From Oceanobacillus indicireducens (GTDB taxonomy: Bacteria > Bacillota > Bacilli > Bacillales > Amphibacillaceae): a DNA stretch of 64,000 nucleotides. The stretch spans positions 1 through 64,000 of the forward strand of contig NZ_BMOS01000019.1 of the NCBI RefSeq assembly GCF_014647195.1, read 5' to 3'. Below the pieces are notes generated by a model. The model saw only the letters and a program-made list of their open reading frames with translations, was not told the origin of the DNA and made no database searches. Shown piece by piece: positions 787-38,685 of this stretch. Position numbers and translations under genes: made by a program. Positions within the stretch are counted from its first letter, which is position 1. Each line of letters starts with the position of its first letter.

Positions 787-875
787 GCGGAAACATGGAC
801 GATATTCTGTCCATGTTTTTTATGTATGATAGGTGGAAGTGTGCTAATATGATATATATTTGAAAGGGGATGGAT

Positions 876-1664
876 ATGATGAAAGTTGCTGTTTACCAAA
901 TGGAACTTGTACCAGGTTCCCCGCATGATAACAGGGAAAAGGTGAAGCGTTGGGTTGGATCAGAAGTAAAGAATGATAAGCCAGACATCATCCTATTGCC
1001 GGAAATGTGGACAACATCCTATGTGCTGGAAGAGCTCCAAACAATTGCAGATGATGCATTAGAGCCTACTAAATCTTTTTTAAGTGAATTGGCGAAGGAA
1101 TACAAGATTAATATTGTCGGTGGCTCGATTGCGAATAAAGTGGATGACAAATTATATAATACGAGTCTTGTTTTTGACCGCGCCGGCAACCTTGTTTATG
1201 AATATAGCAAGATGCACCTCGTACCGATGTTGAACGAACCAGCATACTTGACTGGTGGCAAGGAAAAAGTGCAAACTTTTGAACTCGATGGGATTCGGAT
1301 GGGTGTCATTATTTGCTATGACCTGCGTTTTCCAGAACTCACGCGCAAGTTGGCGTTAGACGGGGCGCAAGTATTATTTATCCCTGCCGAATGGCCGAAA
1401 CCGCGTACCAATCATTGGGTTAACCTGCAAATAGCCCGCGCAATTGAAAACCAAATGTATGTCGTATCTGCAAACAATGTCGGCACCCTGAATGAGGTTG
1501 AATACACCGGAACTTCTTTAATCGCAGACCCTTGGGGAGATGTTCTCGTAAAAGGTTCAGAAGATAAAGAAGAAACATTACGAGGCACAATCAATCCGGA
1601 CAGGGTAATTGAAGTCAGAAAAAGTGTCCCAATCTTTGAAAGCCGTGTCCCAGAGTTATATTAA
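876..1664 (+). CDS. mtnU: Carbon-nitrogen (nitrilase-superfamily) hydrolase, MtnU/YkrU-like omega-amidase
   Basis: This is a single-domain nitrilase-superfamily hydrolase of the size typical for omega-amidases (about 262 residues). The catalytic triad is visible, numbered from the ATG at 876: Glu43 (LLPEMWT), Lys112 (EYSKMHLVPM) and Cys147 (GVIICYDLRFPE). Omega-amidases hydrolyse 2-oxoglutaramate or 2-oxosuccinamate; in Bacillus methionine salvage MtnU removes the 2-oxoglutaramate formed when MtnE uses glutamine as amino donor. The aminotransferase gene follows 25 bp downstream, which fits that role. The AAAGGGG ribosome site abuts the ATG at 870, so 876 (spacing 6) or 879 (spacing 9) is the likelier start. 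The family is clear; the exact substrate is inferred from the neighbour. Confidence 0.85.
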   Translation: MMKVAVYQMELVPGSPHDNREKVKRWVGSEVKNDKPDIILLPEMWTTSYVLEELQTIADDALEPTKSFLSELAKEYKINIVGGSIANKVDDKLYNTSLVFDRAGNLVYEYSKMHLVPMLNEPAYLTGGKEKVQTFELDGIRMGVIICYDLRFPELTRKLALDGAQVLFIPAEWPKPRTNHWVNLQIARAIENQMYVVSANNVGTLNEVEYTGTSLIADPWGDVLVKGSEDKEETLRGTINPDRVIEVRKSVPIFESRVPELY

Positions 1665-1689: not shown

Positions 1690-2856
1690 ATGGAATTTTC
1701 GAATCGCCTAAAGGAGTTGCCCGTTCAATTTTTTGCAACTCTCGTAGAAAAAGTGACAAAAGCATACGCAGAAGGTCGCGATGTCATTAATTTGGGGCAA
1801 GGGAACCCGGATCAACCAACTCCACCCAATATTGTGCAAGCTTTGCAAGAAGCTGCCGCAGACCCAAATTCACATAAATACTCGCCGTTTCGTGGCACAG
1901 CGGAATTGAAACGAGCAGCAGCCGATTTCTATAAGCGGGAATACAATGTCGATTTAGACCCGGAAGCGGAAGTAGCTGTTTTATTTGGGACGAAGATTGG
2001 CTTAGTCGAACTACCCCTCGCCTTAATGAACGAAGGCGACATGCTGTTACTGCCAGATCCAGGCTACCCGGACTATCTATCTGGCGTCAAGCTTGCGAAT
2101 GTTCGGCATGAAGTAATGCCATTACTTCGAGAAAATGCATTCTTACCAGACTATGACAAGCTCACGCCGAAACAATTAGAAGAAGCGAAATTACTTTACT
2201 TAAATTATCCGAATAATCCTACAGGAGCCATCGCTTCCAAAGAATTTTTCGAAGAGACGGCACAGTTAGGCAAGGAGCACGGTATCGGTATCGTCCATGA
2301 TATTGCTTACGGTGCAATAGGCTTTGACGGGAAAAAACCGGTTAGTTTCCTCGAGGTAGAGGGCGCTAAAGATATCGGGATCGAGCTTTATACCTTATCG
2401 AAAACATACAATATGGCCGGTTGGCGAGTAGGATTTGCTGTTGGGAACGCGAAAATGATTGAAGCGATCAATCTCCTGCAAGATCATTTATTCGTTAGTC
2501 TGTTCCCCGCAGTCCAACATGCGGCGGCTGTTGCCTTAACTGCAGAGCAATCAAGTGTGGAGGAATTAGTCGAGCTGTATGAAGGGCGCAGGAATGCATT
2601 AATCGCGGCATGTAAACGGATTGGTTGGGAAGTTGAAGCTCCTAGTGGCTCGTTCTTTGCATGGCTGCCGGTTCCGAGTGGGTATACAAGTGAGCAATTT
2701 GCTGATTTGCTACTGGAAAAGGCTGATGTTGCTGTCGCCGCCGGAAATGGCTTCGGGACGTACGGGGAAGGTTATATCCGGATCGGTTTACTAGTTGATG
2801 AAGCCCGTCTTGAAGAAGCAGTCGAACGGATTGAAAAACTTAAACTTTTCTCTTAG
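1690..2856 (+). CDS. mtnE: PLP-dependent aminotransferase, MtnE/YkrV-like (glutamine:4-methylthio-2-oxobutanoate)
   Basis: A fold-type I aminotransferase of about 388 residues. Visible motifs are the N-terminal NLGQGNPDQPTPP, the NYPNNPTGA loop and the PLP lysine Lys238 in LSKTYNMAGWR, followed by the C-terminal arginine region YIRIGLLVD. Sequence character and the adjacent omega-amidase gene match Bacillus MtnE/YkrV, which makes methionine from 4-methylthio-2-oxobutanoate in the last step of methionine salvage. The frame is open back to 1609, overlapping mtnU, but AAAGAGG at 1675-1681 places the start at ATG 1690 (ATG 1684 is only 2 nt from it). A general aromatic/aspartate aminotransferase role cannot be excluded. 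Confidence 0.85.
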   Translation: MEFSNRLKELPVQFFATLVEKVTKAYAEGRDVINLGQGNPDQPTPPNIVQALQEAAADPNSHKYSPFRGTAELKRAAADFYKREYNVDLDPEAEVAVLFGTKIGLVELPLALMNEGDMLLLPDPGYPDYLSGVKLANVRHEVMPLLRENAFLPDYDKLTPKQLEEAKLLYLNYPNNPTGAIASKEFFEETAQLGKEHGIGIVHDIAYGAIGFDGKKPVSFLEVEGAKDIGIELYTLSKTYNMAGWRVGFAVGNAKMIEAINLLQDHLFVSLFPAVQHAAAVALTAEQSSVEELVELYEGRRNALIAACKRIGWEVEAPSGSFFAWLPVPSGYTSEQFADLLLEKADVAVAAGNGFGTYGEGYIRIGLLVDEARLEEAVERIEKLKLFS

Positions 2857-2935
2857 TCTGAAAGATTACTAAAATAAGAGTTGACGACACGTAACTTTTG
2901 CTGTAGTCTATATCAATATAATTAAATAGTTTTAT

Positions 2936-3047
2936 CTCTTATCAAGAGTAGCTGAGGGACTGGCCCGATGAAGCTCGGCAACCTTTTTATGTCAACCATA
3001 AAAGAGGTGCTAATTCCAGCAAAACGTGATGTTTTGAAAGATAAGAG
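2936..3047 (+). promoter_or_regulatory. SAM-I riboswitch (S-box leader)
   Basis: The S-box core is recognisable: P1 5' strand CTCTTATC (2936-2943), AAGAGTAGCTGAGGGACTGG, GATGAAGCTCGGCAACC, GAGGTGCTAATTCCAGCA, and P1 3' strand GATAAGAG (3040-3047). The segment AAGAGAGG (3043-3050), which includes the P1 3' strand, is complementary to CCTCTCTT (3071-3078) in the following terminator. That is the standard anti-terminator design: SAM binding frees the terminator. A candidate -35 (TTGACG) lies at 2881-2886. The regulated operon (metN onward) begins only at 3505, after a repeat element. Confidence 0.95.
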
Positions 3048-3068
3048 AGGACCTCTGAATACATACAA

Positions 3069-3105
3069 AGCCTCTCTTTCTTTAGAAAAGAGAGGCTATT
3101 TTTAT
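3069..3105 (+). terminator. Intrinsic terminator of the S-box leader
   Basis: AGCCTCTCTTTC pairs with GAAAAGAGAGGCT across a short TTTA loop and is followed by ATTTTTATT. Its left arm can instead pair with the 3' strand of riboswitch P1, so it is the expression platform of the SAM riboswitch. Confidence 0.92.
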
Positions 3106-3148
3106 TGTATAAGCAACTATAAAGTAAAAGTGTTGTGATAACTTAGGT

Positions 3149-3444
3149 GTCCAGGGCCAGCCACGTCCGCTCTGCGCCCAGCAACTAGCAGATCTTTTGG
3201 TGGGACGAGCAGTGCGCATTCCCAAACTTCACACTCCTCCAATCGATAAGTCAACATCGGCTCAAAACTAAAGGAGGGCCGTTTAAATTCGGGCTAAAGC
3301 CCAACGGCGGGATACCGCTGAAGGAGCATGGTTCCTTTATCTCATTCCGGAGTGCTCCAGTTTGTACGTTGCTACGACGCACAGGATGTGCTAGTGCAGG
3401 TGTTGCGACAGGACGTCGCGTTTTTAACCTGCAAGGGCGCTTCC
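3149..3444. repeat. ~290-bp dispersed repeat, copy 1
   Basis: This segment contains blocks that occur in reverse complement at 15562-15849: CGCCCAGC.ACTAGC, CGATAAGTCAACATCG, TACGACGCACAGGATGTGCT, GGTGTTGCGA and TTTTTAACCTGCAAGGGCGC. It has no convincing reading frame. It lies between the S-box terminator and metN, so it is transcribed as part of the met operon leader. It also contains nested palindromes (CACAGGATGTG and others), like a non-autonomous structured element. Confidence 0.85.
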
Positions 3445-3504
3445 GCCTTTGTTTATACCAACTATTTCTTAATCTAAAGACGATTGGAAGGGAAAGGTAG
3501 ATAG

Positions 3505-4521
3505 ATGATCAAATTAGAGAACATCACGAAGGTATTCCCATCTAAAAATGGGAATGTTACAGCGGTAAACAATGTTAACCTTCATGTAAAAAAAGGTGAA
3601 ATCCACGGTGTCATTGGCTACAGTGGTGCTGGTAAAAGTACCTTAATCCGGCTCGTCAATTTACTGGAAAAGCCGAACAGTGGAACGGTAACAATCAATG
3701 GCACAGAGCTAACAGCCCTATCAAATGAAAATTTGCGGAAAATGAGACAGAAGATCGGAATGATTTTCCAGCATTTCAATCTCATGAAGACTGCAACCGT
3801 TTATGAGAACGTAGCAACACCACTAAGACTTCTAGGGCTTAACAAAACAGAAGTGAAAGAACGTGTAGAAAAATATTTGAAAATTGTTGATTTAGGAGAC
3901 AGAGAGGACAGCTATCCTTCTCAATTATCTGGTGGACAGAAGCAGCGGGTAGCCATTGCACGCGCATTATCACAGGAACCAGAAATCCTGCTGAGCGACG
4001 AGGCGACAAGTGCCCTTGACCCCGAAACAACTAATTCAATTCTTGATTTACTCCTTAAGATTAACAAAGAACTTGGGATAACCATCTTACTCATTACCCA
4101 CGAAATGAGTGTTATTCAGAAGATTTGTGACGACGTGTCGGTTCTTGAAAATGGAGAAATCGTTGAACAGCGCTCCAGTATCGAATTGTTCACCGATCCC
4201 CGTCATAAGACGACAAAGAAGTTTTTAGATACGATTTCCCAGCGTAAATTATCCGCATCACTCATCAACCAATTGAAACTAAATGGTACGGTGACAAGCC
4301 TGACCTTTATTGGAGAGAGTGCCGGGGAGCCTTTACTTGCACAAGTGATTGAGAAGTTTAAAGTGAAGCCGAATATTTTAACGGCGAATATTATGGAATT
4401 GAAAAACGGAATCGTCGGAAATCTGATCATTCATCTTGTTGGTGAACAGGATCAAATCAATGCCTCCTTAACGTTCTTAAACGATCAAGGGGTCGTAACA
4501 GAAGAAGTGGAGGGTGAATAA
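3505..4521 (+). CDS. metN: Methionine ABC transporter ATP-binding protein MetN
   Basis: A cytoplasmic ATPase of a methionine/methionine-sulfoxide importer. Walker A GYSGAGKS is at residues 38-45, the Q-loop in GMIFQHFN, the signature LSGGQ at 141-145, and a Walker B region (ILLSDEATSALDP) followed by the H-loop in ITHEM. The C-terminal ~95 residues form a NIL domain, which in MetN binds methionine and inhibits transport. The length (338) is that of full MetN. In Walker B the usual CDEAT reads SDEAT. The gene heads an operon with metP 5 bp downstream and is under the S-box leader at 2936-3105. A GGAAGGGAAAGG ribosome site precedes ATG 3505. Confidence 0.95.
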   Translation: MIKLENITKVFPSKNGNVTAVNNVNLHVKKGEIHGVIGYSGAGKSTLIRLVNLLEKPNSGTVTINGTELTALSNENLRKMRQKIGMIFQHFNLMKTATVYENVATPLRLLGLNKTEVKERVEKYLKIVDLGDREDSYPSQLSGGQKQRVAIARALSQEPEILLSDEATSALDPETTNSILDLLLKINKELGITILLITHEMSVIQKICDDVSVLENGEIVEQRSSIELFTDPRHKTTKKFLDTISQRKLSASLINQLKLNGTVTSLTFIGESAGEPLLAQVIEKFKVKPNILTANIMELKNGIVGNLIIHLVGEQDQINASLTFLNDQGVVTEEVEGE

Positions 4522-4526
4522 ATAAA

Positions 4527-5189
4527 ATGGAAAACTTTATCGAACAATGGCTGCCTATTATTGGCCAAGCTATCATTGAAACGTTTCAAATGGTCATCAT
4601 TTCCTTATTTTTTGCGATTTTGATTGGGGTGCCTTTAGGCATACTTGTTGTACTGACACGCCCGGGACAATCATTGGAAAATAAATTCGTCTATCAATTA
4701 TTGAATCTCGTTATAAACATAGTCCGCTCGATTCCGTTTATTATTCTATTATTCTTTATTCTGCCATTTACGAAATTCTTGGTCGGCACAACGATTGGCG
4801 TGCAAGGTGTTATCGTTCCACTCGTTATTTACACCGCACCATATCTTGCACGCTTACTGGAAAGTTCTCTACTCGAAGTGGATAGCGGAATTATTGAAGC
4901 ATATAAAGCAATGGGGATTAAAACACATAAAATCATCTGGAGTGTCATGCTTCGGGAAGCACGTCCATCCATCGTTTTAGGCTTAACAATTGTTACAATC
5001 AGCTTGATCGGTGCGACCGCAATGGCCGGTCTAGTCGGTGCAGGGGGACTCGGAGATCTTGCGTATCGTTTCGGACACTTACGTTATGAAGTAGATGTCA
5101 TGTATGCAACGGTCTTTATCTTAATCATCCTCGTCCAAGGAATCCAGTCCCTTGGTAACCGGATCGCTGCACGTTTGAAAAAGGATTAA
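4527..5189 (+). CDS. metP: Methionine ABC transporter permease MetP (MetI)
   Basis: A 220-residue membrane protein with five predicted hydrophobic segments. The permease coupling motif is EAYKAMGIKTHKIIWSVMLR, and the tail GLVGAGGLGDLAYRFG is typical of MetI-type permeases. It forms the transmembrane channel of the MetNPQ importer. It begins 5 bp after metN and is followed by two oxidoreductase genes before metQ, so the transporter genes are separated by enzymes. This order is unusual, since metNPQ genes are normally contiguous. Confidence 0.95.
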   Translation: MENFIEQWLPIIGQAIIETFQMVIISLFFAILIGVPLGILVVLTRPGQSLENKFVYQLLNLVINIVRSIPFIILLFFILPFTKFLVGTTIGVQGVIVPLVIYTAPYLARLLESSLLEVDSGIIEAYKAMGIKTHKIIWSVMLREARPSIVLGLTIVTISLIGATAMAGLVGAGGLGDLAYRFGHLRYEVDVMYATVFILIILVQGIQSLGNRIAARLKKD

Positions 5190-5222
5190 ACGGAAGAAAG
5201 CCAACTTTAGGAGGTAGAAGTC

Positions 5223-6365
5223 TTGACGACTACAAAGCCGAAAGATGCATTCATTACGAACCTAGAAACAACGGAGACTTTTCCTTTTCGTGTAGAAGAA
5301 TTAGAGGCAAAAGCGAAAGAAAAAATGTCGAAAAATGCATTTGGATACACCCGCTCAGGAGGCGGAGGGGAGGAGACGTTGCGGAAAAACACCGCTTCAT
5401 TCGAGAAATATTCTATTCTGCCCCAATATTTAAATGATGTCTCCAACGTGGATACAAGTATTGAGCTATTTGGTCATACGTACCGCCACCCATTTTTGCT
5501 CGCTCCGATCGGAATGCTGAAAACTACGCATGAAGAAGCGGAACTTGCGGTTGCAAAAGCAGCTGCGAAATTGGATGTACCTTATATACAAAGCACGGTT
5601 TCCAGTTACGCAATCGAGGAAGTGGCAGAGGTTTCAGAAGGTAGTCCAAAATGGTTCCAGTTGTACTGGTCCAATAACGAAAATATTTCCTTTAATATGG
5701 TAAAGCGTGCAGAAGAAGCAGGCTATCAAGCAATCGTCCTTACTATCGATACAACAATGTTCGGCTGGCGCGAGGAGGACATGACGAACCGATTCTCACC
5801 GCTGAAAGCAGGCTACGGAAAAGCGAATTATATTACAGATAGTGCCTTTCTATCCACATTAAAGCAGGACGACGAGGCATCTGTCGTAGAAGAAATTTTG
5901 CAAAACATTTACCATCCGAAGTTAAGCTGGAAGCATGTTGCTGAACTGAAGAAACGCACATCTCTCCCGGTTTTATTAAAAGGAATCCTACATCCGACAG
6001 ATGCAAGACTCGCGATTGAAAACGGGGTCGATGGCATTATCGTTTCCAACCATGGCGGTCGGCAGTTAGATGGTGTCATCTCTAGCATTGACGCGCTCCC
6101 AGCAGTTGTAGAAGAGGTTGGAGGGGAAGTCCCGATTTTAATCGATAGTGGCATTCGCCGCGGAGCAGATGTCGTTAAAGCACTTGCGCTAGGTGCCGAC
6201 GCGGTTTTACTCGGCAGACCTTACGCATATGGGCTAGCCCTCGCTGGACAAGCCGGTGTTGAAAAAGTACTCACAAACTTTATGCAGCAGACAAGATCCT
6301 CCCTTGCGCTTGCCGGAGCGTCGAGTGTCAAGGCAGCGCGAAATATTCATATTTTGAAAGATTAA
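5223..6365 (+). CDS. FMN-dependent alpha-hydroxy acid oxidase/dehydrogenase (lactate oxidase / lactate 2-monooxygenase-like)
   Basis: A TIM-barrel FMN enzyme of the glycolate oxidase/lactate oxidase family, 380 residues. Visible signatures are PIGMLKTTHEEAELAVAKAA, the WFQLYWSN substrate strand, LLKGILHPTDA, the catalytic His277 and Arg280 in VSNHGGRQLDG, and the FMN phosphate site DSGIRRGADVVKALALGADAV..GRPY. Enzymes of this family oxidise L-2-hydroxy acids to 2-oxo acids using O2 or another acceptor. It starts with TTG 5223 behind a strong AGGAGG (about 5210-5215) and sits inside an S-box-controlled methionine uptake operon. The likely substrate is therefore an L-2-hydroxy acid of sulfur metabolism, such as 2-hydroxy-4-methylthiobutanoate. 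Family call firm; substrate inferred from context. Confidence 0.88.
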   Translation: MTTTKPKDAFITNLETTETFPFRVEELEAKAKEKMSKNAFGYTRSGGGGEETLRKNTASFEKYSILPQYLNDVSNVDTSIELFGHTYRHPFLLAPIGMLKTTHEEAELAVAKAAAKLDVPYIQSTVSSYAIEEVAEVSEGSPKWFQLYWSNNENISFNMVKRAEEAGYQAIVLTIDTTMFGWREEDMTNRFSPLKAGYGKANYITDSAFLSTLKQDDEASVVEEILQNIYHPKLSWKHVAELKKRTSLPVLLKGILHPTDARLAIENGVDGIIVSNHGGRQLDGVISSIDALPAVVEEVGGEVPILIDSGIRRGADVVKALALGADAVLLGRPYAYGLALAGQAGVEKVLTNFMQQTRSSLALAGASSVKAARNIHILKD

Positions 6366-6395
6366 GCGAAGTAGGCGAAAAAAGGAGCACGTTAG

Positions 6396-7481
6396 ATGGC
6401 AACAGCAATTGTAAAAGGAGCACCAGGCCATTACCGGACCGGTTCCGGTGTTTTAAAAGAATTACCGACGCATCTGGCAGATTTAGGTGTAAAAAATATT
6501 CATATTGTAAGTGGCAGAAAGGCATGGCAAGCGACATCACCCTATCTTCCGGAAGAATTGGATCACCAAGCATTAACATTCGTCGATGGTCCTTGCACAT
6601 TAGAAACGAGCGAACAATTAGCAGCAATGTGCGAAAAAGAAAAAGCGGATGCTGTCATCGGTATCGGCGGAGGGACTGCACTCGATATTGCAAAAGCAGC
6701 AGCCGTCCAAGCTGGAATCAAGTCGGTTCTAATACCGACAATCGCAGCGACCTGTGCCGCCTGGACACCGCTTAGCGTATTCTATGAAGCGGACGGAACT
6801 CATTCCCACTATACCGAGTTCCCGGTAGCGAACACGCTCGTCCTGATTGAACCAGCAATCATTGCAGCTTCACCGATTCGATTTTTGAAGGCTGGGATCG
6901 GTGACACTTTGGCAAAATACTATGAAGCAGACGCGTTAGTTCGCAGTTTTTACAAGAATCAAGAATTCCCAGTTTGGTTGCAAGTTTCCCAGTTCGCTGC
7001 AAGAGCATGCCGCGATATTTTATTAAAAGACGGAAAAGCTGCACTTGAATCGGTTTCGAAGCAAGAAGTTACCGACGCACTTGCCCGCGTCATCGAAACG
7101 ATTATTATGACAGGCGGCATGGTCGGTGGCTTCGGTGAAAAAGCGGGCAGGATTGCCGGGGCCCACTCGGTTCATAACGGTTTAACGGAGGCACCTAGTG
7201 TCAAAGATTTCTTGCACGGATCGATTGTTGCTTACGGTACGTTAGTCCAACTTGCGATAGAAGGAAAAGAGGAAGAACTCGACAAACTGCTGCAGTTTTA
7301 TAAAGAATGGGAACTTCCAACATCATTAAAAGATTTATCCGTAGATGTAAAGGACACGGAATTACTAGGAAGGATCATTAAAAAGATTTTACTTCCACAA
7401 GAATCAATCCATTTAATGGAAGAAAAAGTGACAGAAGACATGTTAGAAAAAGCAATCTTCTATGTCGAAAATAAAATATGA
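6396..7481 (+). CDS. Iron-containing alcohol dehydrogenase, hydroxycarboxylate dehydrogenase-like (HcxA/GldA branch)
   Basis: A 361-residue group III, GldA-like dehydrogenase. The NAD(P) site is VIGIGGGTALDIAK, followed by IPTIAATCAAWTPLSV. Likely metal ligands are Asp170 (GIGDTLAKYYE), His257/His260 (AGAHSVHNGL) and His274 (FLHGSIVAYG). The loop and the HSVHNGL motif resemble E. coli HcxA/YbdH, which reduces 2-oxo acids and oxidises hydroxycarboxylates, more than true glycerol dehydrogenases. The gene lies 30 bp after the FMN oxidase and 18 bp before metQ, in the S-box operon. A role in interconverting 2-hydroxy- and 2-oxo-4-methylthiobutanoate is inferred. A glycerol dehydrogenase annotation would be the main alternative. 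Confidence 0.82.
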   Translation: MATAIVKGAPGHYRTGSGVLKELPTHLADLGVKNIHIVSGRKAWQATSPYLPEELDHQALTFVDGPCTLETSEQLAAMCEKEKADAVIGIGGGTALDIAKAAAVQAGIKSVLIPTIAATCAAWTPLSVFYEADGTHSHYTEFPVANTLVLIEPAIIAASPIRFLKAGIGDTLAKYYEADALVRSFYKNQEFPVWLQVSQFAARACRDILLKDGKAALESVSKQEVTDALARVIETIIMTGGMVGGFGEKAGRIAGAHSVHNGLTEAPSVKDFLHGSIVAYGTLVQLAIEGKEEELDKLLQFYKEWELPTSLKDLSVDVKDTELLGRIIKKILLPQESIHLMEEKVTEDMLEKAIFYVENKI

Positions 7482-7499
7482 AAGAATGAGGGGAAATAA

Positions 7500-8312
7500 A
7501 TGAAAAAGACATTATTAACAGCAATACTTGCAAGTGTATTAATTCTATTCGCTGCTTGTGGCGGCGGCTCGGATGAAGGGGAAGGACTGCTCGAAGATGG
7601 AAAACTCGTTGTTGGAGTAACAGCAGGACCGCATGAAGAAGTTTTAGAAAAAGTGAAAGAGCTTGCGGAAGAGGAAGACTTGACGATTGAAATTGTGTCA
7701 TTCAGTGATTATGTAATGCCGAACGTGAGTCTATCGGAAGGGGAACTCGATATCAACAGTTTCCAAACGGAGCCATTTTTTGATCATATGAATGAAGAAC
7801 GTGGCCTGGATTTAGTAAAAGTTGCCGATACGATTACTTTCCCAATGGGAATTTATTCTGAGAAAGTTACAGATATAGCTGATTTAGAAGACGGTGCAAG
7901 TATTGGTCTTCCAAGTGACCCGACAAATAGTGGACGTGCATTATTATTATTTGAACAAGCTGGCTTAATCACGCTAGAAGAAGGACTTGGCGTAAACGCT
8001 ACTGTCAATGATATCGCAGAAAATGAACATAACTATGAATTTATTGAGCTCGATTCTGCACAAATTCCGCGTCAGCTTGGTGAAGTGGATATCGCAGCAA
8101 TCAACTCGAACTTTGCAATGGAAGCAGGACTTGTACCTGGAGAAGACTCGATTTTCATTGAACAAGATTCCACTTTTGTTAACTTGATTGCGGTACGCAA
8201 AGAAAACGAAGACGATCCAGCCGTTCAACAGTTCATCGATATTTATCAATCGGATGAAGTGGAGCAATTTGTTGAAGAAACGTATGGAGGATCGATCATT
8301 CCTGGTTGGTAG
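7500..8312 (+). CDS. metQ: Methionine ABC transporter substrate-binding lipoprotein MetQ
   Basis: A NlpA/MetQ-family lipoprotein of 270 residues with a signal peptide ending in the lipobox LFAAC (lipid-modified Cys near residue 20). The mature protein carries the family motifs VGVTAGPHEEVLE, DINSFQTEPFFDH, ASIGLPSDPTNSGRALLLFEQAGLI and AAINSNFAMEAGL. It binds the substrate outside the membrane and delivers it to MetNP. It is the last gene of the S-box operon and is followed by a terminator. Its placement behind two hydroxy-acid enzymes suggests the ligand could include the hydroxy analogue of methionine as well as methionine. Confidence 0.95.
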   Translation: MKKTLLTAILASVLILFAACGGGSDEGEGLLEDGKLVVGVTAGPHEEVLEKVKELAEEEDLTIEIVSFSDYVMPNVSLSEGELDINSFQTEPFFDHMNEERGLDLVKVADTITFPMGIYSEKVTDIADLEDGASIGLPSDPTNSGRALLLFEQAGLITLEEGLGVNATVNDIAENEHNYEFIELDSAQIPRQLGEVDIAAINSNFAMEAGLVPGEDSIFIEQDSTFVNLIAVRKENEDDPAVQQFIDIYQSDEVEQFVEETYGGSIIPGW

Positions 8313-8341
8313 GTAGTTGGACAGAAATTGAATGTAAAAGT

Positions 8342-8387
8342 AGTGGGTAAGATCATCAAAATATGATTTTACCCGCTATTTTTTTGA
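8342..8387 (+). terminator. Intrinsic terminator after metQ
   Basis: AGTGGGTAAGATCAT pairs imperfectly with ATGATTTTACCCGCT, followed by ATTTTTTT. It ends the metN...metQ operon. Confidence 0.9.
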
Positions 8388-8768: not shown

Positions 8769-9995
8769 ATGTCAAATTTAAAACAAGAAAACACATTACT
8801 TTCCGTGAAGGATCAGAAGGCTCGTAGAAGATCCCTCATTGGAGCGGCGTTTTTAATGGCAACGTCTGCAGTGGGGCCGGGATTCCTCACACAAACAGCA
8901 GTATTCACAGAATCGCTTTTGGCAAGCTTCGGTTTTGTCATATTCATTTCGATTCTATTAGATATAGGTGCACAGCTTAATGTATGGCGTATTATTAGTG
9001 TTTCAGGACTGCGCGGTCAGGAAATTGCGAATAAAGTTTTGCCAGGGTTAGGGTTCGTTGTCGCCATCTTTATCGTTATTGGTGGTCTTGCCTTTAATAT
9101 CGGAAATATTGGCGGGGCAGGCTTAGGAGTTAACGTTGTACTAGGAATAGATCCAACAGTCGGAGCATTGATTTCTGCTGCATTTGCAATCTTCATATTC
9201 CTATCAAAAGAAGCTGGAGCGGCAATGGACAGGATTGTAAATGTTTTAGGAGCATTGTTAGTCCTTTTGATAGGTTATGTCATGTTCGTGAGTCAACCAC
9301 CGATGGGGGAAGCGATTTATCGGACGTTCGTTCCACTTGAGCTTGATGTGTACGCGATTATTACAATTGTTGGTGGTACGGTTGGTGGGTATATCACGTT
9401 TTCTGGAGGCCACCGGTTACTCGATGCAGGAATTAAAGGTAAGGAATCGATTCCCGAAGTGAAAAGAACGGCTGTACTCGGTATTAGTGTCGCTTCACTC
9501 GTCCGGATTTTACTTTTCCTAGCGGTGTTAGGAGTTGTTTCTCAAAGAGTTGCCCTTGATCCGAGCAATCCTGCAGCAACTGTTTTCCAATCAGCCGCTG
9601 GTGATATTGGTTACCGATTATTTGGGATCGTTCTATGGGTTGCGGGTATCACCTCCGTCATAGGAGCGGCATATACATCCGTATCCTTCTTGCGCACCTT
9701 CCATCCGGTCATTGATAAATTTCATAAATACTGGATCATCGCATTTATTATCATTTCAACATTCGTATTTGTGACGATTGGTGAAGCTACAACCTTGCTT
9801 GTTCTTGCGGGAGCGGTAAATGGCTTGATTCTGCCACTCGTATTAGGCTCTATGCTGCTTGCAGCCCATAACAAGAAGATTATAGGAGACTACAAACACC
9901 CGGTGTGGTTGACGATATTTGGAGCGCTCGTTGTCATCTTAACTACAATACTCGGAGTCCGCACATTGATTCAAATGATCCCACAGCTATTCTAA
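8769..9995 (+). CDS. NRAMP-related membrane transporter (YcsG-like)
   Basis: A 408-residue protein with about eleven hydrophobic segments and the overall NRAMP fold signature. Classical metal-transporting NRAMPs carry DPGN in helix 1 and MPH in helix 6. Here the helix 1 position reads SAVGPGFLTQTAVFTESL and the helix 6 region reads GGTVGGYITFSGGHRLLDAG, so the metal ligands are absent. It is directly followed by pxpB, pxpA and pxpC, the same association as Bacillus ycsG with ycsF/kipI/kipA. A role in importing 5-oxoproline or a related organic substrate, rather than Mn2+, is an inference from those two facts. Ribosome site AGGAGG, ATG 8769. Confidence 0.85.
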   Translation: MSNLKQENTLLSVKDQKARRRSLIGAAFLMATSAVGPGFLTQTAVFTESLLASFGFVIFISILLDIGAQLNVWRIISVSGLRGQEIANKVLPGLGFVVAIFIVIGGLAFNIGNIGGAGLGVNVVLGIDPTVGALISAAFAIFIFLSKEAGAAMDRIVNVLGALLVLLIGYVMFVSQPPMGEAIYRTFVPLELDVYAIITIVGGTVGGYITFSGGHRLLDAGIKGKESIPEVKRTAVLGISVASLVRILLFLAVLGVVSQRVALDPSNPAATVFQSAAGDIGYRLFGIVLWVAGITSVIGAAYTSVSFLRTFHPVIDKFHKYWIIAFIIISTFVFVTIGEATTLLVLAGAVNGLILPLVLGSMLLAAHNKKIIGDYKHPVWLTIFGALVVILTTILGVRTLIQMIPQLF

Positions 9996-10034
9996 TCATG
10001 ATAGAATAAGAATACACATGGTAAACGTGAAATC

Positions 10035-10781
10035 ATGACAGAAATGGTGAAAGCAATGTTTGAAATCAGTATGTACGGTGATAGGGGAATTCGAATCCAA
10101 CTAGGAACTGCGATTTCAAAAAAGACGAACGAGCGTATTCGTCATTTCTCTGTTCTCTTGGAGAAGGAAAATATTCCGGGAATCATCGAATGGATTCCAG
10201 CCTATACAGCATTGTCGATTTATTATGATCCATTTTTGATTTCATACGATTCCTTAGTGAATCGTATGAAATCCCTTTATGAAAAACATTCACTCGTCGA
10301 ATTGCCTCCACCGCTAGTTACGGAGATACCTGTCTACTATGGGGAGGAATATGGTCCCGACCTTGGATTTGTCGCTGAACATAATGGACTTACCACCAAA
10401 GAAGCAATTCAGATTCATACGGGTACCAATTATCTTATCTATATGATGGGATTCTCTCCGGGATTTCCATATCTTGGGGGGATGTCAAAAGAAATCGCTA
10501 CCCCACGGCATGCATCTCCCCGGGCAAAGGTTCCAGCAGGAGCTGTAGGGATAGCTGGTGCCCAAACGGGAATCTATTCAATGGAAAGCCCTGGAGGCTG
10601 GCGAATTATCGGAAGAACTCCAGTGAAATTATATAATCCATTCGATAGGCAACCCATTTTACTTCGAGCAGGGAATTATATTCGTTTCTCCTCTATAACA
10701 AAAACAGAATATGAGGAAATTCAGACAGCTGTATCACTTGGAACTTATGAGCCGAAAGTGGAACAATACAGAGGGGAGTGA
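10035..10781 (+). CDS. pxpB: 5-oxoprolinase subunit PxpB (KipI family)
   Basis: A 248-residue KipI-family protein (carboxyltransferase domain, subdomain C/D). Visible family features are GDRGIRIQLG near the start, the GTNYLIYMMGFSPGFPYLGG block, PRHASPRAKVPAGAVGIAGAQTGIYS and SPGGWRIIGRTP. With PxpA and PxpC it forms the ATP-dependent prokaryotic 5-oxoprolinase, which opens 5-oxo-L-proline to glutamate. The Bacillus homologue KipI also inhibits the sporulation kinase KinA, so regulatory action is possible. ATG 10056, preceded by GGTGA, is an alternative start matching the usual N-terminus. It overlaps or abuts pxpA, indicating coupling. Confidence 0.9.
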   Translation: MTEMVKAMFEISMYGDRGIRIQLGTAISKKTNERIRHFSVLLEKENIPGIIEWIPAYTALSIYYDPFLISYDSLVNRMKSLYEKHSLVELPPPLVTEIPVYYGEEYGPDLGFVAEHNGLTTKEAIQIHTGTNYLIYMMGFSPGFPYLGGMSKEIATPRHASPRAKVPAGAVGIAGAQTGIYSMESPGGWRIIGRTPVKLYNPFDRQPILLRAGNYIRFSSITKTEYEEIQTAVSLGTYEPKVEQYRGE

Positions 10782-10786
10782 AAGGC

Positions 10787-11554
10787 TTGGAAAAATATCT
10801 CGTCGATATAAATAGTGATTTAGGCGAAAGCTTTGGTGCGTACCAAATTGGTCAAGATGATGCAGTTATGAAATATATTACTTCAGCAAATATTGCAGCG
10901 GGCTTCCATGCAGGTGATCACAATGTGATTGCACGCGCTGTAAAAATGGCGGCCGAAAACAATGTCGGAATCGGTGTCCATCCTGGGTTCCAGGATTTGC
11001 AGGGATTTGGCAGACGCCTACTTCATGTGGACCCTAAAGAAATCTATAATCTTATCGTTTATCAGATTGGTGCCGTCCAGTCTTTTGCAAAGCTATTTGA
11101 TCAGGAATTGAGTCATGTGAAACCGCACGGGGCATTGTATAATCTTGCAGCGAAAGACTTCCAGCGGGCCCAGGCTATCGCTCATGCAGTTTATGATTTC
11201 GATCCGAATCTTATCCTGTTTGGACTTGCAGGCAGTGAGCTTGTGAAAGCAGGGGAAGCGGTTGGTCTCCAAGTTGCGAATGAAGTTTTTGCCGACCGCA
11301 CTTATCAGCCGGATGGGTCACTCACACCACGGAGGGAAGCAAATGCAATGATTGAAGATCCTAAACAAGCAGTGGATCGGGTAATCCGGATGGTGAAGGA
11401 TGGAAAAGTAGAAGCTGTAGATGGAAGTGATGTGTCAATCACCGCAGATACGATCTGTGTTCATGGCGATACAGATGCGGCACTTGCCTTTGTGATGGAA
11501 CTGCAACAAGGATTAGTCAAAAATGGGATTACGATAAAAAGAGTGGGGAAGTAA
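10787..11554 (+). CDS. pxpA: 5-oxoprolinase subunit PxpA (LamB/YcsF family)
   Basis: A LamB/YcsF family protein of about 255 residues. Visible motifs are DINSDLGESFGAY at the start, ANIAAGFHAGDH, GIGVHPGFQDLQGFGRR, HVKPHGALYN, EVFADRTYQPDGSLTPR and ICVHGDT; the conserved Asp/His positions form the probable active site. It is the hydrolytic subunit of 5-oxoprolinase. The frame is open from GTG 10778, which overlaps the pxpB stop, but GAGGGG at 10771-10776 is only 1 nt from that GTG and 10 nt from TTG 10787. TTG 10787 also gives the family-typical N-terminus. pxpC follows without a gap. Confidence 0.92.
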   Translation: MEKYLVDINSDLGESFGAYQIGQDDAVMKYITSANIAAGFHAGDHNVIARAVKMAAENNVGIGVHPGFQDLQGFGRRLLHVDPKEIYNLIVYQIGAVQSFAKLFDQELSHVKPHGALYNLAAKDFQRAQAIAHAVYDFDPNLILFGLAGSELVKAGEAVGLQVANEVFADRTYQPDGSLTPRREANAMIEDPKQAVDRVIRMVKDGKVEAVDGSDVSITADTICVHGDTDAALAFVMELQQGLVKNGITIKRVGK

Positions 11555-12514
11555 ATGGAAAAGAGAATGATTGAAGTGTTGAAGCCCGGTCTCGCAACAT
11601 CTGTGCAGGATTTAGGTCGGAGTGGTTATCAGCAACTGGGAATGGTAGTTGCAGGTGCCATGGATCACTTTGCTCTTCAGATTGGAAATATCCTTGTTGG
11701 GAACAGGCGAAGTGCAGCAGGTCTAGAAGTCGTGTTAATGGGACCGAAACTACGCTTTTTAAAAGACACGGTCATTGCAATTTGCGGTGCCGACCTGTCT
11801 CCAACAATTGACGGTAAAACGATTCAGTTGTGGAAATCATATCGCCTTTCTGAAGGACAAATCCTATCCTTTGGAAAACCTGTCACAGGTTCTTATGCTT
11901 ATATCGCAGTGAGTGGCGGCATACAAACACCAAGAATTATGGGAAGTCGCTCAACCTATGTCAAAGCAAAAATCGGTGGATTGGATGGCCAATATCTTGT
12001 AAAAGGTGACGTCCTTCCAACTGGGGATCCTGTTTTGGGATGTTCTGGAAGGCAGCTCCACCCTAATCTAGTACCAGATTATGATAAACCAAGGAGAATT
12101 CGCGTTATTCTTGGTCCCGACGACAAGTCCTTTACGAAGCAGGGAATACGCACATTTTTAACAGGAACCTACAAGAAGACGTCCCGTACAGACCGGATGG
12201 GTACTCGTCTAATTGGGCCGAAGATTACCCATGCGAAGGGAGCGGATATTATTTCAGATGCAACCTTCCCCGGAACAATCCAAGTACCGGCAAATGGCCA
12301 GCCCATCATCCTACTTGCTGACCGGCAGCCAACTGGCGGATACACAAGGATTGCCACGGTAATAACAGAAGACATACCAAGATTAGCCCAAATTCAGCCA
12401 GGAAAAGAATTGACTTTCGAAGCGGTCAGCCTGGGGCTCGCCCACAATTTATACATGCGCCGCGAACGAATGCTAAAATTACTTAGCCAAGTGGGACAAG
12501 GAGTCCATCCTTAA
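11555..12514 (+). CDS. pxpC: 5-oxoprolinase subunit PxpC (KipA family, biotin-dependent carboxyltransferase-like)
   Basis: A 319-residue KipA family protein with the subdomain A/B fold seen in urea amidolyase carboxyltransferases. Typical motifs are VLKPGLATSVQDLGRSGYQQLG, GAMDHFALQIGN, TDRMGTRLIGP, GTIQVPANGQPIILLADRQPTGGYTRIATV and the C-terminal arginine-rich end. It completes the PxpABC 5-oxoprolinase. It starts at the base after the pxpA stop codon. In Bacillus KipA also counteracts KipI, linking the operon to sporulation signalling. No terminator is obvious after it. Confidence 0.93.
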   Translation: MEKRMIEVLKPGLATSVQDLGRSGYQQLGMVVAGAMDHFALQIGNILVGNRRSAAGLEVVLMGPKLRFLKDTVIAICGADLSPTIDGKTIQLWKSYRLSEGQILSFGKPVTGSYAYIAVSGGIQTPRIMGSRSTYVKAKIGGLDGQYLVKGDVLPTGDPVLGCSGRQLHPNLVPDYDKPRRIRVILGPDDKSFTKQGIRTFLTGTYKKTSRTDRMGTRLIGPKITHAKGADIISDATFPGTIQVPANGQPIILLADRQPTGGYTRIATVITEDIPRLAQIQPGKELTFEAVSLGLAHNLYMRRERMLKLLSQVGQGVHP

Positions 12515-37069: not shown

Positions 37070-37176
37070 CCTTTATCAAGAGTCGGGGTAGGAATCTGGT
37101 CCGTTGATCCCGCGGCAACCATTACGTTACGTAATAAGGTGCTAATTCCAGCAAGCAGATGCTTGAAAGATGAGGG
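37070..37176 (+). promoter_or_regulatory. SAM-I riboswitch (second S-box)
   Basis: Core elements in order: P1 5' strand CCTTTATC (37070-37077), AAGAGTCGGGGTAGGAATCTGG, GATCCCGCGGCAACC, AAGGTGCTAATTCCAGCAAGCAGATGCTTGAAAGATGAGG (broken here by length: the GGTGCTAATTCCAGCA block and the GAAAGATGAGG P1 3' strand). The GATGAGG end can pair with CCTCATC (37201-37207) in the following terminator loop, giving the anti-terminator. It controls the monooxygenase gene at 37309. Confidence 0.94.
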
Positions 37177-37192
37177 GGTGAAGCTATCGAAC

Positions 37193-37225
37193 AAACTCTT
37201 CCTCATCCTGGAAGAGTTTTTTTAT
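37193..37225 (+). terminator. Intrinsic terminator of the second S-box leader
   Basis: AAACTCTTCC (37193-37202) pairs with GGAAGAGTTT (37210-37219) and is followed by TTTTATT. Its loop CCTCATC is complementary to the riboswitch P1 3' strand. Confidence 0.92.
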
Positions 37226-37308
37226 TATCCCAAATCCTATTAAAAATATAGGAAAAGTATATTATGTGTTACCGAAACAAAAACAAAACAAAAAAGGAGT
37301 GGCTAAAA

Positions 37309-38685
37309 ATGAGTAACAAGAAACAAATTCATTTAAACGGTTTTGTACAAAATTCACCATCCCCACATTCTACTGGACTATGGAAACATGAGAAAGATGA
37401 AGGACTTAAGCATAATAGTCTCGAATACTGGACGGAAACAGCGAAAGTATTGGAACAAGGTAAATTTGATGCTGTATTTATCGCCGATGTGTTAGGAACC
37501 TATTCGGTCTATGGAAACAGTCACGATGCAGCAATCCGCCATGCCGTCCAATTGCCTGCCCATGATCCATTATTAATTATTTCTGCCATGGCACAGGTTA
37601 CCCGGCATATTGGCTTTGCACCAACCGTTTCAGCTACATATGCCCAACCCTATGCATTGGCACGTCAGTTGTCGACATTAGATCATTTGACGGAAGGCCG
37701 TCTTGCGTGGAATGTCGTTACTTCCTATTTGGAAAGTGAAGCGATCAACCTTGGCTTATCTGGTCGTCTGCCAAAGAGTCAGCGTTATGACCGGGCAGAT
37801 GAATTCTTAGAAGTCGTTTATAAGCTTTGGGAACATAGCTGGGAAGATGATGCAGTTGTGCACGATAGAGCGGGAGACCTATTTGCGGATCCCGAAAAGG
37901 TTCATGCCATCAATCATCACGGGGAGTTTTTCAACGTACCAGGAATTCATTTAACGGAACCGTCCCCACAGCGGACACCTGTCTTATTCCAAGCTGGTGC
38001 TTCTCCAAGAGGGCGGGATTTTGCAGCGAAACATGCGGAGGGCGTATTCACGAAAGGGCATTCCTTGGAAGCCCAGAAGAATTACTCTCAAGACTTACGT
38101 AAGCGGGTCGTCGAACAAGGAAGGAATGCTGATAGTGTCCGCATCTTCCCAATGGTCCTCCCGATTGTCGGTTCCACGGAAGAAGAAGCATATGCGAAAT
38201 ACGAGGATTTGAAGAACCATGTCAGTTATGAAGGAACTGCTGCACTGCTTTCCGGACATACAGGAATTGATTTCTCGAAATATAATCCGGATTAATACAT
38301 TGAAGATATTGAAACAGAGGCCGTTCAAGGAAATCTTGATATGTATACGAAGGACCCGATAAAGAAGTGGACATTGCGGGAATCCATCCAAAATCATGGC
38401 CTCGGTAATGGAACAGCGAAATTCATTGGAACACCAGAACAAATTGCAGATAAAATCGAGGAATGGGCAACAGAAGGAGACGTCGATGGATTCAATATCG
38501 CACAAAGCTATTCCTTGGAAACCTTTCGTGAGTTTGTCGATCATGTCGTACCGGAATTACAGAATCGTGGTATCTACCGGAAGGAATACACAGGAAAAAC
38601 ATTACGGGAAAGTCTGTTTGATACCGATTCCGCTCGTTTGCCCGCGAACCATCCGGCAAAAAGAGTATATACCCTAATAAAGTGA
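37309..38685 (+). pseudogene. NtaA/SnaA/DszA-family flavin monooxygenase, split by one in-frame TAA
   Basis: The first part (37309-38295) encodes 328 residues of an FMN-dependent bacterial luciferase-like monooxygenase of the NtaA/SnaA/DszA group: KQIHLNGFVQNSPSPHSTGLWKH would be the start, then TYSVYGNSHDAAIRHAVQLP, GRLAWNVVTSYLES and PVLFQAGASPRGRDFAAKHAEGVF. A TAA at 38293-38295 stops it after YNPD, yet the same frame continues without a gap (YIEDIETEAVQGN) into the normal C-terminal third (38296-38685). A single-base change explains the break. The gene follows the second S-box, so it belongs to sulfur metabolism; related enzymes oxidise organosulfur compounds such as S-methylcysteine derivatives. 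True start ATG 37309 has AAAGGAGTGG. Confidence 0.87.

What the first reader, a model, noticed from the sequence alone, without database searches (positions are those of the whole stretch)
2936..8387. S-box operon joining a methionine importer to two hydroxy-acid redox enzymes: possible methionine hydroxy-analogue pathway
Seen: S-box leader, then metN-metP-(FMN 2-hydroxyacid oxidase)-(HcxA-like iron-type dehydrogenase)-metQ with tight spacing and one terminator after metQ. The two enzymes are placed between transporter subunits. Known: FMN 2-hydroxyacid oxidases make 2-oxo acids from L-hydroxy acids, HcxA-type dehydrogenases interconvert hydroxy and oxo acids, and MtnE (here 1690-2856) makes methionine from 4-methylthio-2-oxobutanoate with MtnU clearing the glutamine-derived by-product. 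Inference: the locus imports 2-hydroxy-4-methylthiobutanoate, oxidises it to the 2-oxo acid and transaminates it, all when SAM is low. I know of no described dedicated bacterial operon of this composition.
Basis: partly seen in the sequence, partly recalled or inferred. Interest (0 to 1): 0.8.

Follow-up and report, generated by a model that had tools for sequence, protein, structure and literature searches.

The report
SAM-controlled hydroxy-methionine scavenging operon
A Bacillus relative carries a riboswitch-controlled gene set that probably takes up the hydroxy version of methionine and turns it into methionine when the cell is short of it, which would give functions to two enzymes whose role was unclear.

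Summary
An S-box (2936-3047) and terminator precede metN-metP-hox-hcxA-metQ (3505-8312; gaps 5-33 nt), with a terminator after metQ. mtnU-mtnE lie just upstream; no S-box precedes them in the window. The link is not local. Over 57 hox-type oxidase loci (56 from 147 genomes, plus Oceanobacillus alkalisoli), 31 have metP/metQ nearby; 29 of 31 lie behind an S-box by script, against 1 of 26 others. HcxA-type dehydrogenases sit near metP, metQ, mtnE or mtnU in 40 of 42 copies examined. Gene orders are shuffled, once S-box-mtnE-hcxA-metQ-metN-metP-hox (L076). In 8 of 8 genomes whose S-box metNP-hox operon lacks metQ, a separate S-box operon holds hcxA-metQ. Of 30 sampled hox-linked genomes, 28 lack mtnK, mtnA and mtnD over cut-off, so MtnE needs another oxo-acid source. 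E. coli pairs hcxA with a methionine transaminase gene under MetJ. Best reading: uptake and oxidation of 2-hydroxy-4-methylthiobutanoate, then transamination to methionine. Substrate, stereochemistry and direction are unproven. CoA-type genes in 7 of 31 linked loci and a changed MetQ side-chain pocket leave room for another methionine-derived hydroxy acid.

The parts
870..1664 (+). mtnU: nitrilase-family protein (CN_hydrolase), omega-amidase-like (function recalled)
   Evidence: recurs with mtnE and hcxA in relatives
1690..2856 (+). mtnE: class I aminotransferase (PRK08068 subfamily, 676 bits, over its 494 cut-off)
2936..3047 (+). S-box (SAM-I riboswitch) aptamer
   Evidence: RF00162, 99.7 bits; fold of 2936-3115 z -3.5
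3069..3097 (+). intrinsic terminator of the S-box leader
3106..3490 (.). high-copy mosaic repeat between leader and metN; holds RF01690 Bacillaceae-1 RNA match 3378-3434 (-)
   Evidence: in O. alkalisoli S-box end to metN is 124 nt
3505..4521 (+). metN: ABC ATPase with NIL domain
4527..5189 (+). metP: MetI-type permease
5223..6365 (+). hox: FMN-dependent 2-hydroxyacid oxidase/dehydrogenase
6396..7481 (+). hcxA: iron-type alcohol dehydrogenase, HcxA/YbdH-like
7500..8312 (+). metQ: substrate-binding lipoprotein with FQTEP in place of FQHxP
8336..8383 (+). intrinsic terminator hairpin after metQ

Best explanation
This is an S-box-controlled operon for using the hydroxy analogue of methionine (2-hydroxy-4-methylthiobutanoate, HMTB/MTHB) as a methionine source. 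When SAM is low the leader reads through. MetN-MetP, served by a specialised MetQ, imports the hydroxy acid. The FMN oxidase oxidises its L form, and HcxA, with a nicotinamide cofactor, handles the other form or works reversibly, giving 4-methylthio-2-oxobutanoate (KMTB). MtnE (encoded next door) transaminates KMTB to methionine, probably from glutamine, and MtnU hydrolyses the by-product 2-oxoglutaramate. Shown by computation: gene content, S-box and terminators, recurrent linkage, split-operon complementarity, and absence of MTR-salvage genes. Inferred: substrate, stereochemical division of labour, direction, cofactor and amino donor.
For: (1) hox and met linkage: 31 of 57 hox copies have metP or metQ within 4 kb on the same strand; 29 of 31 are in an unbroken S-box-headed run by script (L045 also by eye), against 1 of 26 unlinked copies. 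Rfam found the S-box in 8 of 8 linked loci checked (4 hox, 4 hcxA loci) and in 0 of 7 unlinked loci checked. (2) The label follows the hox tree: 4 changes against a shuffled mean of 19.0, 0 of 500 shuffles as low; the window genome's second hox (C5) is in the unlinked clade. (3) hcxA: 40 of 42 examined copies at >=38.5% identity are within 3 kb of metP, metQ, mtnE or mtnU, and 28 of 42 are in an S-box run. Of these 42, 29 come from loci fetched for hcxA alone; 27 of 29 have such a neighbour. (4) Shuffled orders argue for function rather than inheritance: L076 S-box-mtnE-hcxA-metQ-metN-metP-hox; L075 and L091 mtnE<hcxA-mtnU-[S-box]-metQ-metN-metP-hox. (5) 8 of 8 genomes whose S-box metN-metP-hox operon lacks metQ hold a second S-box-hcxA-metQ operon. 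(6) Of 30 sampled genomes with linked hox, 28 lack mtnK, mtnA and mtnD over cut-off; the own genome has no match to any. (7) E. coli K-12 hcxA lies beside ybdL, annotated methionine transaminase. The pair shares MetJ sites and came together when the mtn cluster between them was lost (PMC3228920, passages). One E. coli methionine auxotroph showed no difference between methionine and its hydroxy analogue in growth (review PMC3274233, passages). (8) The genome holds a second S-box metNPQ with an FQH MetQ (L142), which suggests that this one is specialised.
Against: No biochemical evidence. MetQ keeps the Asn motifs that match the amino/carboxyl-binding residues of N. meningitidis MetQ but has Thr for a thioether-side His (matched by motif), which would suit a changed side chain more than a changed alpha group. 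7 of 31 linked hox loci (L040-L043, L045, L047, L059) also carry an enoyl-CoA-hydratase-family gene and a CaiB/BaiF CoA-transferase, and 3 of 31 (L046, L051, L055) a 2-keto-4-pentenoate-hydratase-like gene. One unlinked hox locus (L061) has weaker relatives of both CoA-type genes, so that association does not depend on methionine genes. mtnE here has no S-box. Only 14 of 31 linked hox stretches hold hcxA and 24 of 31 hold mtnE. Window HcxA scores under the NCBIfam cut-off, and so do MetN, MetP and MetQ. Oxidase pocket positions do not separate linked from unlinked copies. The E. coli control genome (strain not stated) does match mtnK and mtnA, so the E. coli parallel rests on the paper, which says that 3 of 51 strains re-acquired these genes.
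Confidence: 0.57

Rival explanations
1. Same logic, different substrate: the operon takes up another methionine-derived hydroxy acid, such as the sulfonium 4-dimethylsulfonio-2-hydroxybutanoate (DMSHB) of the DMSP pathway or an oxidised form, and processes the oxo acid further in species with the CoA-type genes.
For: MetQ side-chain pocket changed, with a Glu present in all 19 FQT-type MetQ seen; enoyl-CoA-hydratase-family plus CoA-transferase genes in 7 of 31 linked loci, in two hox clades, and an oxo-enoate-hydratase-like gene in 3 of 31; MTHB and DMSHB are intermediates of the transamination route to DMSP (PMC10989797, passages).
Against: MtnE/MtnU and S-box linkage point to KMTB and methionine; 31 of 49 MetQ, among them all hox-clade-II ones, keep the His. 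E. coli HcxA is paired with a methionine transaminase gene without such genes beside it.
Confidence: 0.18
2. HcxA and Hox are a redox valve for KMTB: HcxA reduces surplus KMTB to HMTB, which Hox re-oxidises, so the pair buffers or racemises the pool rather than assimilating an outside compound.
For: HcxA of E. coli is described (recalled, not from a call) as a reductase of 2-oxo acids; both enzymes could meet at the same oxo/hydroxy pair.
Against: Neither gene would need a dedicated importer, yet both recur in S-box transporter operons; 28 of 30 genomes lack the MTR genes tested, whose pathway would make KMTB.
Confidence: 0.12
3. Ordinary methionine importer operon that has picked up generic lactate/glycolate oxidase and glycerol-dehydrogenase-type genes with no methionine role.
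For: Family-level similarity to lactate oxidase/monooxygenase and glycerol dehydrogenase.
Against: Recurrent linkage in shuffled orders over many genera, separate clades from the unlinked oxidase, and split-operon complementarity.
Confidence: 0.05

Closest known systems
S-box metNPQ methionine ABC importer operon of Bacillales
   Same: S-box, terminator, MetN with NIL domain, MetI-type permease, NlpA/MetQ lipoprotein
   Different: two hydroxy-acid redox enzymes between permease and binding protein; MetQ with FQTEP instead of FQHxP; the genome also has a plain S-box metNPQ (L142)
E. coli hcxA (ybdH)-ybdL MetJ-regulated pair
   Same: HcxA-type dehydrogenase (40% identity to window HcxA) paired with a methionine transaminase gene under a SAM-sensing regulator, in a lineage that lost the mtn cluster (PMC3228920, passages)
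   Different: no oxidase or transporter gene adjacent; transaminase of another subfamily (YbdL 26% to window MtnE); MetJ rather than a riboswitch
MtnE-MtnU end of the MTR methionine salvage pathway
   Same: KMTB transaminase and omega-amidase (functions recalled; families)
   Different: mtnK, mtnA and mtnD not found in this genome
Animal L-2-hydroxyacid oxidase use of feed methionine hydroxy analogue (recalled)
   Same: FMN oxidase family (hydroxyacid oxidase 1 among PDB hits)
   Different: bacterial, riboswitch-controlled, next to a dedicated importer

Membership tests
SAM-I riboswitch (S-box) | match over Rfam gathering score with full aptamer | tested here: met
   99.7 bits, positions 1-108 of 108
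SAM-I riboswitch (S-box) | terminator between aptamer and first gene | tested here: met
   3069-3097
MetNPQ importer | ATPase with NIL domain, MetI-type permease, NlpA lipoprotein | tested here: met
   Pfam
MetNPQ importer | NCBIfam cut-offs for MetN, MetI and MetQ | tested here: not met
   MetN 369.6 of 499.7, MetI 205 of 212, MetQ/NlpA 226.7 of 228.85 bits; each is the best or near-best family
MetNPQ importer | methionine-contact residues of MetQ conserved | tested here: inconclusive
   Asn of FVNLI (E. coli N229, N. meningitidis N238) and INxN kept; H100-equivalent is Thr, Y103-equivalent is Phe (matched by motif)
MetNPQ importer | binds methionine or its hydroxy analogue | not testable with these tools
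   needs a binding assay
FMN-dependent 2-hydroxyacid oxidase | FMN_dh domain with SNHGGRQ motif (catalytic role recalled) | tested here: met
   PF01070 422.5 bits; motif present
FMN-dependent 2-hydroxyacid oxidase | acts on HMTB | not testable with these tools
   pocket positions uninformative
HcxA (YbdH) | NCBIfam PRK10586 score over cut-off | tested here: not met
   311.1 bits against 429, although it is the best-scoring family
HcxA (YbdH) | Fe-ADH D/H/H metal-ligand positions (recalled) and the TCAAWTPLSV motif of E. coli HcxA | tested here: met
MTR methionine salvage pathway | mtnK, mtnA and mtnD present | tested here: not met
   no match in the own genome
HMTB assimilation pathway | HMTB supports growth of a methionine auxotroph through these genes | not testable with these tools
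   needs strain work

The most novel reading that the evidence does not exclude
Free hydroxy-methionine, and perhaps its sulfonium relative from DMSP synthesis, is a natural methionine currency for which Bacillales evolved a dedicated SAM-riboswitch-controlled import-and-oxidation pathway (Hox + HcxA + special MetQ + MtnE/MtnU). Enterobacteria have a MetJ-controlled counterpart (HcxA + YbdL) that persists where MTR salvage was lost.
Probability: 0.4. Interest if true: 0.78.

Novelty: new variant of a known kind. Interest (0 to 1): 0.62.

Why it matters
It gives a testable function to HcxA/YbdH, called a protein of unknown function that co-occurs with methionine salvage genes in PMC3228920 (passages), and to clades of lactate-oxidase-like enzymes. 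It would explain why genomes without the MTR-salvage genes tested keep MtnE and MtnU. It suggests that the hydroxy analogue, used as an animal feed additive, circulates in nature, where MTHB is an intermediate of DMSP synthesis (PMC10989797, passages). My searches of the held open-access library returned no paper that I recognised, from titles and abstract openings, as describing such a bacterial operon. The passages seen of a survey of SAM-riboswitch regulons (PMC3766115) name no oxidase or dehydrogenase. The most relevant older survey (Rodionov 2004, NAR) is not held, so prior mention cannot be excluded.

Tried and rejected
Oxidase pocket: I looked for a long-chain signature at the position of lactate oxidase Ala95 (recalled literature). 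Gly is there in 31 of 31 linked and 24 of 26 unlinked copies and in E. coli LldD, and no column separated the groups at the thresholds used, so it says nothing.

Spread beyond the order: 398 genomes drawn over the phylum gave 5 with a hox match at E <= 1e-95, the own genome included; the neighbourhoods of the other four were not examined.

HcxA matches were followed up by identity; most of the weakest, glycerol-dehydrogenase-like matches were not fetched, so 40 of 42 applies to the >=38.5% rows examined (13 of the 42 come from loci fetched for hox, from L039 or from the window itself; the G025 copy, L159, was fetched later and is not in the count).

MetQ with FQTEP was sampled from hox or hcxA neighbourhoods, so its adjacency to them is partly by construction.

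Fisher tests on MTR genes ignore kinship and are only descriptive. The mtnD list left out one partial over-cut-off match (G018, 27.5 bits, not a linked-hox genome). Several linked-hox genomes have short matches below cut-off, counted as absent.

A sigma-70 scan of 2860-3520 found no + strand promoter-like site. Structure prediction was not run, because stretches from the genome search are not among the inputs its rule lists.

They are in 7 of 31 linked loci, not 6, and weaker relatives lie near one unlinked hox. I lowered the main reading from 0.60 to 0.57 and raised the different-substrate rival from 0.15 to 0.18.
Full report
OBSERVATION. The S-box at 2936-3047 scores 99.7 bits over the full model; 2936-3115 folds with z -3.5, and there is a terminator at 3069-3097. 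Then come metN, metP, an FMN hydroxyacid oxidase (hox), an HcxA-like iron-type dehydrogenase and metQ, separated by 5, 33, 30 and 18 nt (families), and a strong terminator hairpin (missed by the simple scan). One thing was missed: 3106-3490 is a mosaic repeat with 86 partial matches in the genome, itself included, between leader and metN. In Oceanobacillus alkalisoli (L039), which has the same gene order at 86-98% protein identity, metN follows the S-box after 124 nt. This nearest named relative suggests the genus Oceanobacillus; the genome itself is unnamed.

LINKAGE OF THE OXIDASE. Of 147 related genomes (the own one included), 53 hold a hox match at E <= 1e-40, 56 matches in all. I read the neighbourhoods of all 56 (the window and 55 fetched stretches, some cut by contig ends) plus L039, 57 in all. 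31 of 57 have metP or metQ within 4 kb on the same strand. A model built from nine S-boxes of this genome was run over the 56 loci other than the window. By script, 29 of 31 linked copies are in an unbroken run headed by an S-box. L045 fails only because its called metQ start overlaps the S-box; in L086 an opposite-strand ORF intervenes. Of 26 unlinked copies one is behind an S-box: L094, a 35% copy lacking the SNHGGRQ motif. Rfam found S-boxes in 8 of 8 linked loci checked (four hox, four hcxA loci) and in 0 of 7 unlinked loci checked. On the tree, linked copies form three well-separated groups apart from a large unlinked clade, which holds this genome's own second copy; 4 changes of label are needed against a shuffled mean of 19.0, 0 of 500 shuffles as low. 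Besides L094, four unlinked copies (L048, L056, L057, L058) fall outside that clade, among or beside the linked groups.

LINKAGE OF HCXA. 72 of 147 genomes hold an hcxA-like match at E <= 1e-30. I examined 51 copies: 14 from the window, L039 and the hox loci, 37 fetched for hcxA, chosen mainly by identity. Of 42 at >=38.5% identity, 40 lie within 3 kb of metP, metQ, mtnE or mtnU and 28 are in an S-box run. Of the nine weaker ones, one lies near such a gene and another is in an S-box run. Arrangements include S-box-hcxA-metQ, S-box-metN-metP-metQ-hcxA, and mtnE<>hcxA-mtnU. Window HcxA is 40% identical to E. coli HcxA, with its TCAAWTPLSV motif and the D/H/H positions.

THE SET BELONGS TOGETHER. 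The genes recur in scrambled orders: L076 has S-box-mtnE-hcxA-metQ-metN-metP-hox; L069, L075, L090 and L091 have mtnE divergent from hcxA-mtnU, then S-box-metQ-metN-metP-hox; L062 and L063 have mtnU-mtnE, hcxA on the other strand, and S-box-metN-metP-hox-metQ. Not every locus has all: within the stretches fetched, 24 of 31 linked hox loci hold mtnE, 14 hcxA, 11 mtnU and 23 metQ. In 8 of 8 genomes whose S-box metN-metP-hox operon lacks metQ (G006, G008, G009, G014, G015, G019, G020, G025), a separate S-box operon holds hcxA-metQ. The window's operon looks like these two modules fused.

WHY KMTB. Of 30 sampled genomes with linked hox, 28 lack mtnK, mtnA and mtnD over cut-off, and the own genome has no match to any. 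MtnE there is therefore unlikely to draw its oxo acid from MTR salvage. Oxidation of the 2-hydroxy acid gives the same oxo acid. E. coli is the parallel: hcxA and ybdL (annotated methionine transaminase) lie side by side in K-12, share MetJ sites and came together when the genes between them were lost (PMC3228920, passages). One E. coli methionine auxotroph used the hydroxy analogue as well as methionine (review PMC3274233, passages); the passages do not say which enzymes it used. The control E. coli genome does match mtnK and mtnA; the paper reports their re-acquisition in 3 of 51 strains, and the control's strain is not stated. The functions given here to MtnE and MtnU (glutamine as amino donor, omega-amidase) are recalled.

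SPECIALISED UPTAKE. The genome has a second, plain S-box metNPQ (L142). In N. meningitidis MetQ, R156, N213 and N238 hold the amino and carboxyl groups, and Y81, F98, H100 and Y103 surround the thioether (PMC6739813, passages). Matching by motif, window MetQ keeps the Asn residues but has FQTEPF where the five PDB alignments shown (of 22 matched) have FQHxPY. The change is shared by 18 of 49 aligned MetQ plus L159, all next to hcxA or hox; the other 31 have His. This points to a different ligand, though to its side chain rather than its alpha group, and I count it as ambiguous.

WHAT DOES NOT FIT. 7 of 31 linked hox loci (L040-L043, L045, L047 and, in another hox clade, L059) carry an enoyl-CoA-hydratase-family gene and a CaiB/BaiF CoA-transferase, and 3 of 31 (L046, L051, L055) a 2-keto-4-pentenoate-hydratase-like gene after hox (family searches on L040, L046 and L051; the rest by similarity to these). 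One unlinked hox locus (L061) has weaker relatives of both CoA-type genes. Nothing in an HMTB-to-methionine route needs them. mtnU-mtnE here is upstream of the S-box. Oxidase pocket positions were uninformative.

CONCLUSION. I put HMTB assimilation at 0.57, another methionine-derived hydroxy acid at 0.18, and a KMTB redox valve at 0.12. It is a new variant of a known kind: an S-box methionine importer operon extended by a probable further entry route to methionine.

Noticed in passing
window 3106-3490 (RF01690 match 3378-3434 -): High-copy mosaic repeat, 86 partial matches in the genome, holding a Bacillaceae-1 RNA match; lies between S-box terminator and metN, with a terminator-like stem of its own at 3404-3420.
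   Followed up: partly
window 37070-38295: Second S-box in the window, upstream of a luciferase-type flavin monooxygenase-like ORF (family by eye) that has an in-frame stop after 343 codons, with the frame open beyond it.
   Followed up: partly
L040-L043, L045, L047, L059; L046, L051, L055; also L061: Enoyl-CoA-hydratase-family and CaiB/BaiF genes, or a 2-keto-4-pentenoate-hydratase-like gene, with hox in S-box met operons, and weaker relatives near an unlinked hox; role unexplained.
   Followed up: partly
L094:8992-9936: Degenerate oxidase copy (about 35% identity, SNHGGRQ motif missing) directly behind an S-box.
   Followed up: no
L144 and L145 (own genome, contigs C22 and C65): Two copies of one S-box region with neighbouring ORFs of the same lengths (339, 181 and 248 aa): recent duplication or assembly artefact.
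   Followed up: no
window 8769-12514: Nramp-family transporter followed by ORFs that look like 5-oxoprolinase subunits (by eye; an order recalled from B. subtilis); reads as a separate unit after the metQ terminator.
   Followed up: no
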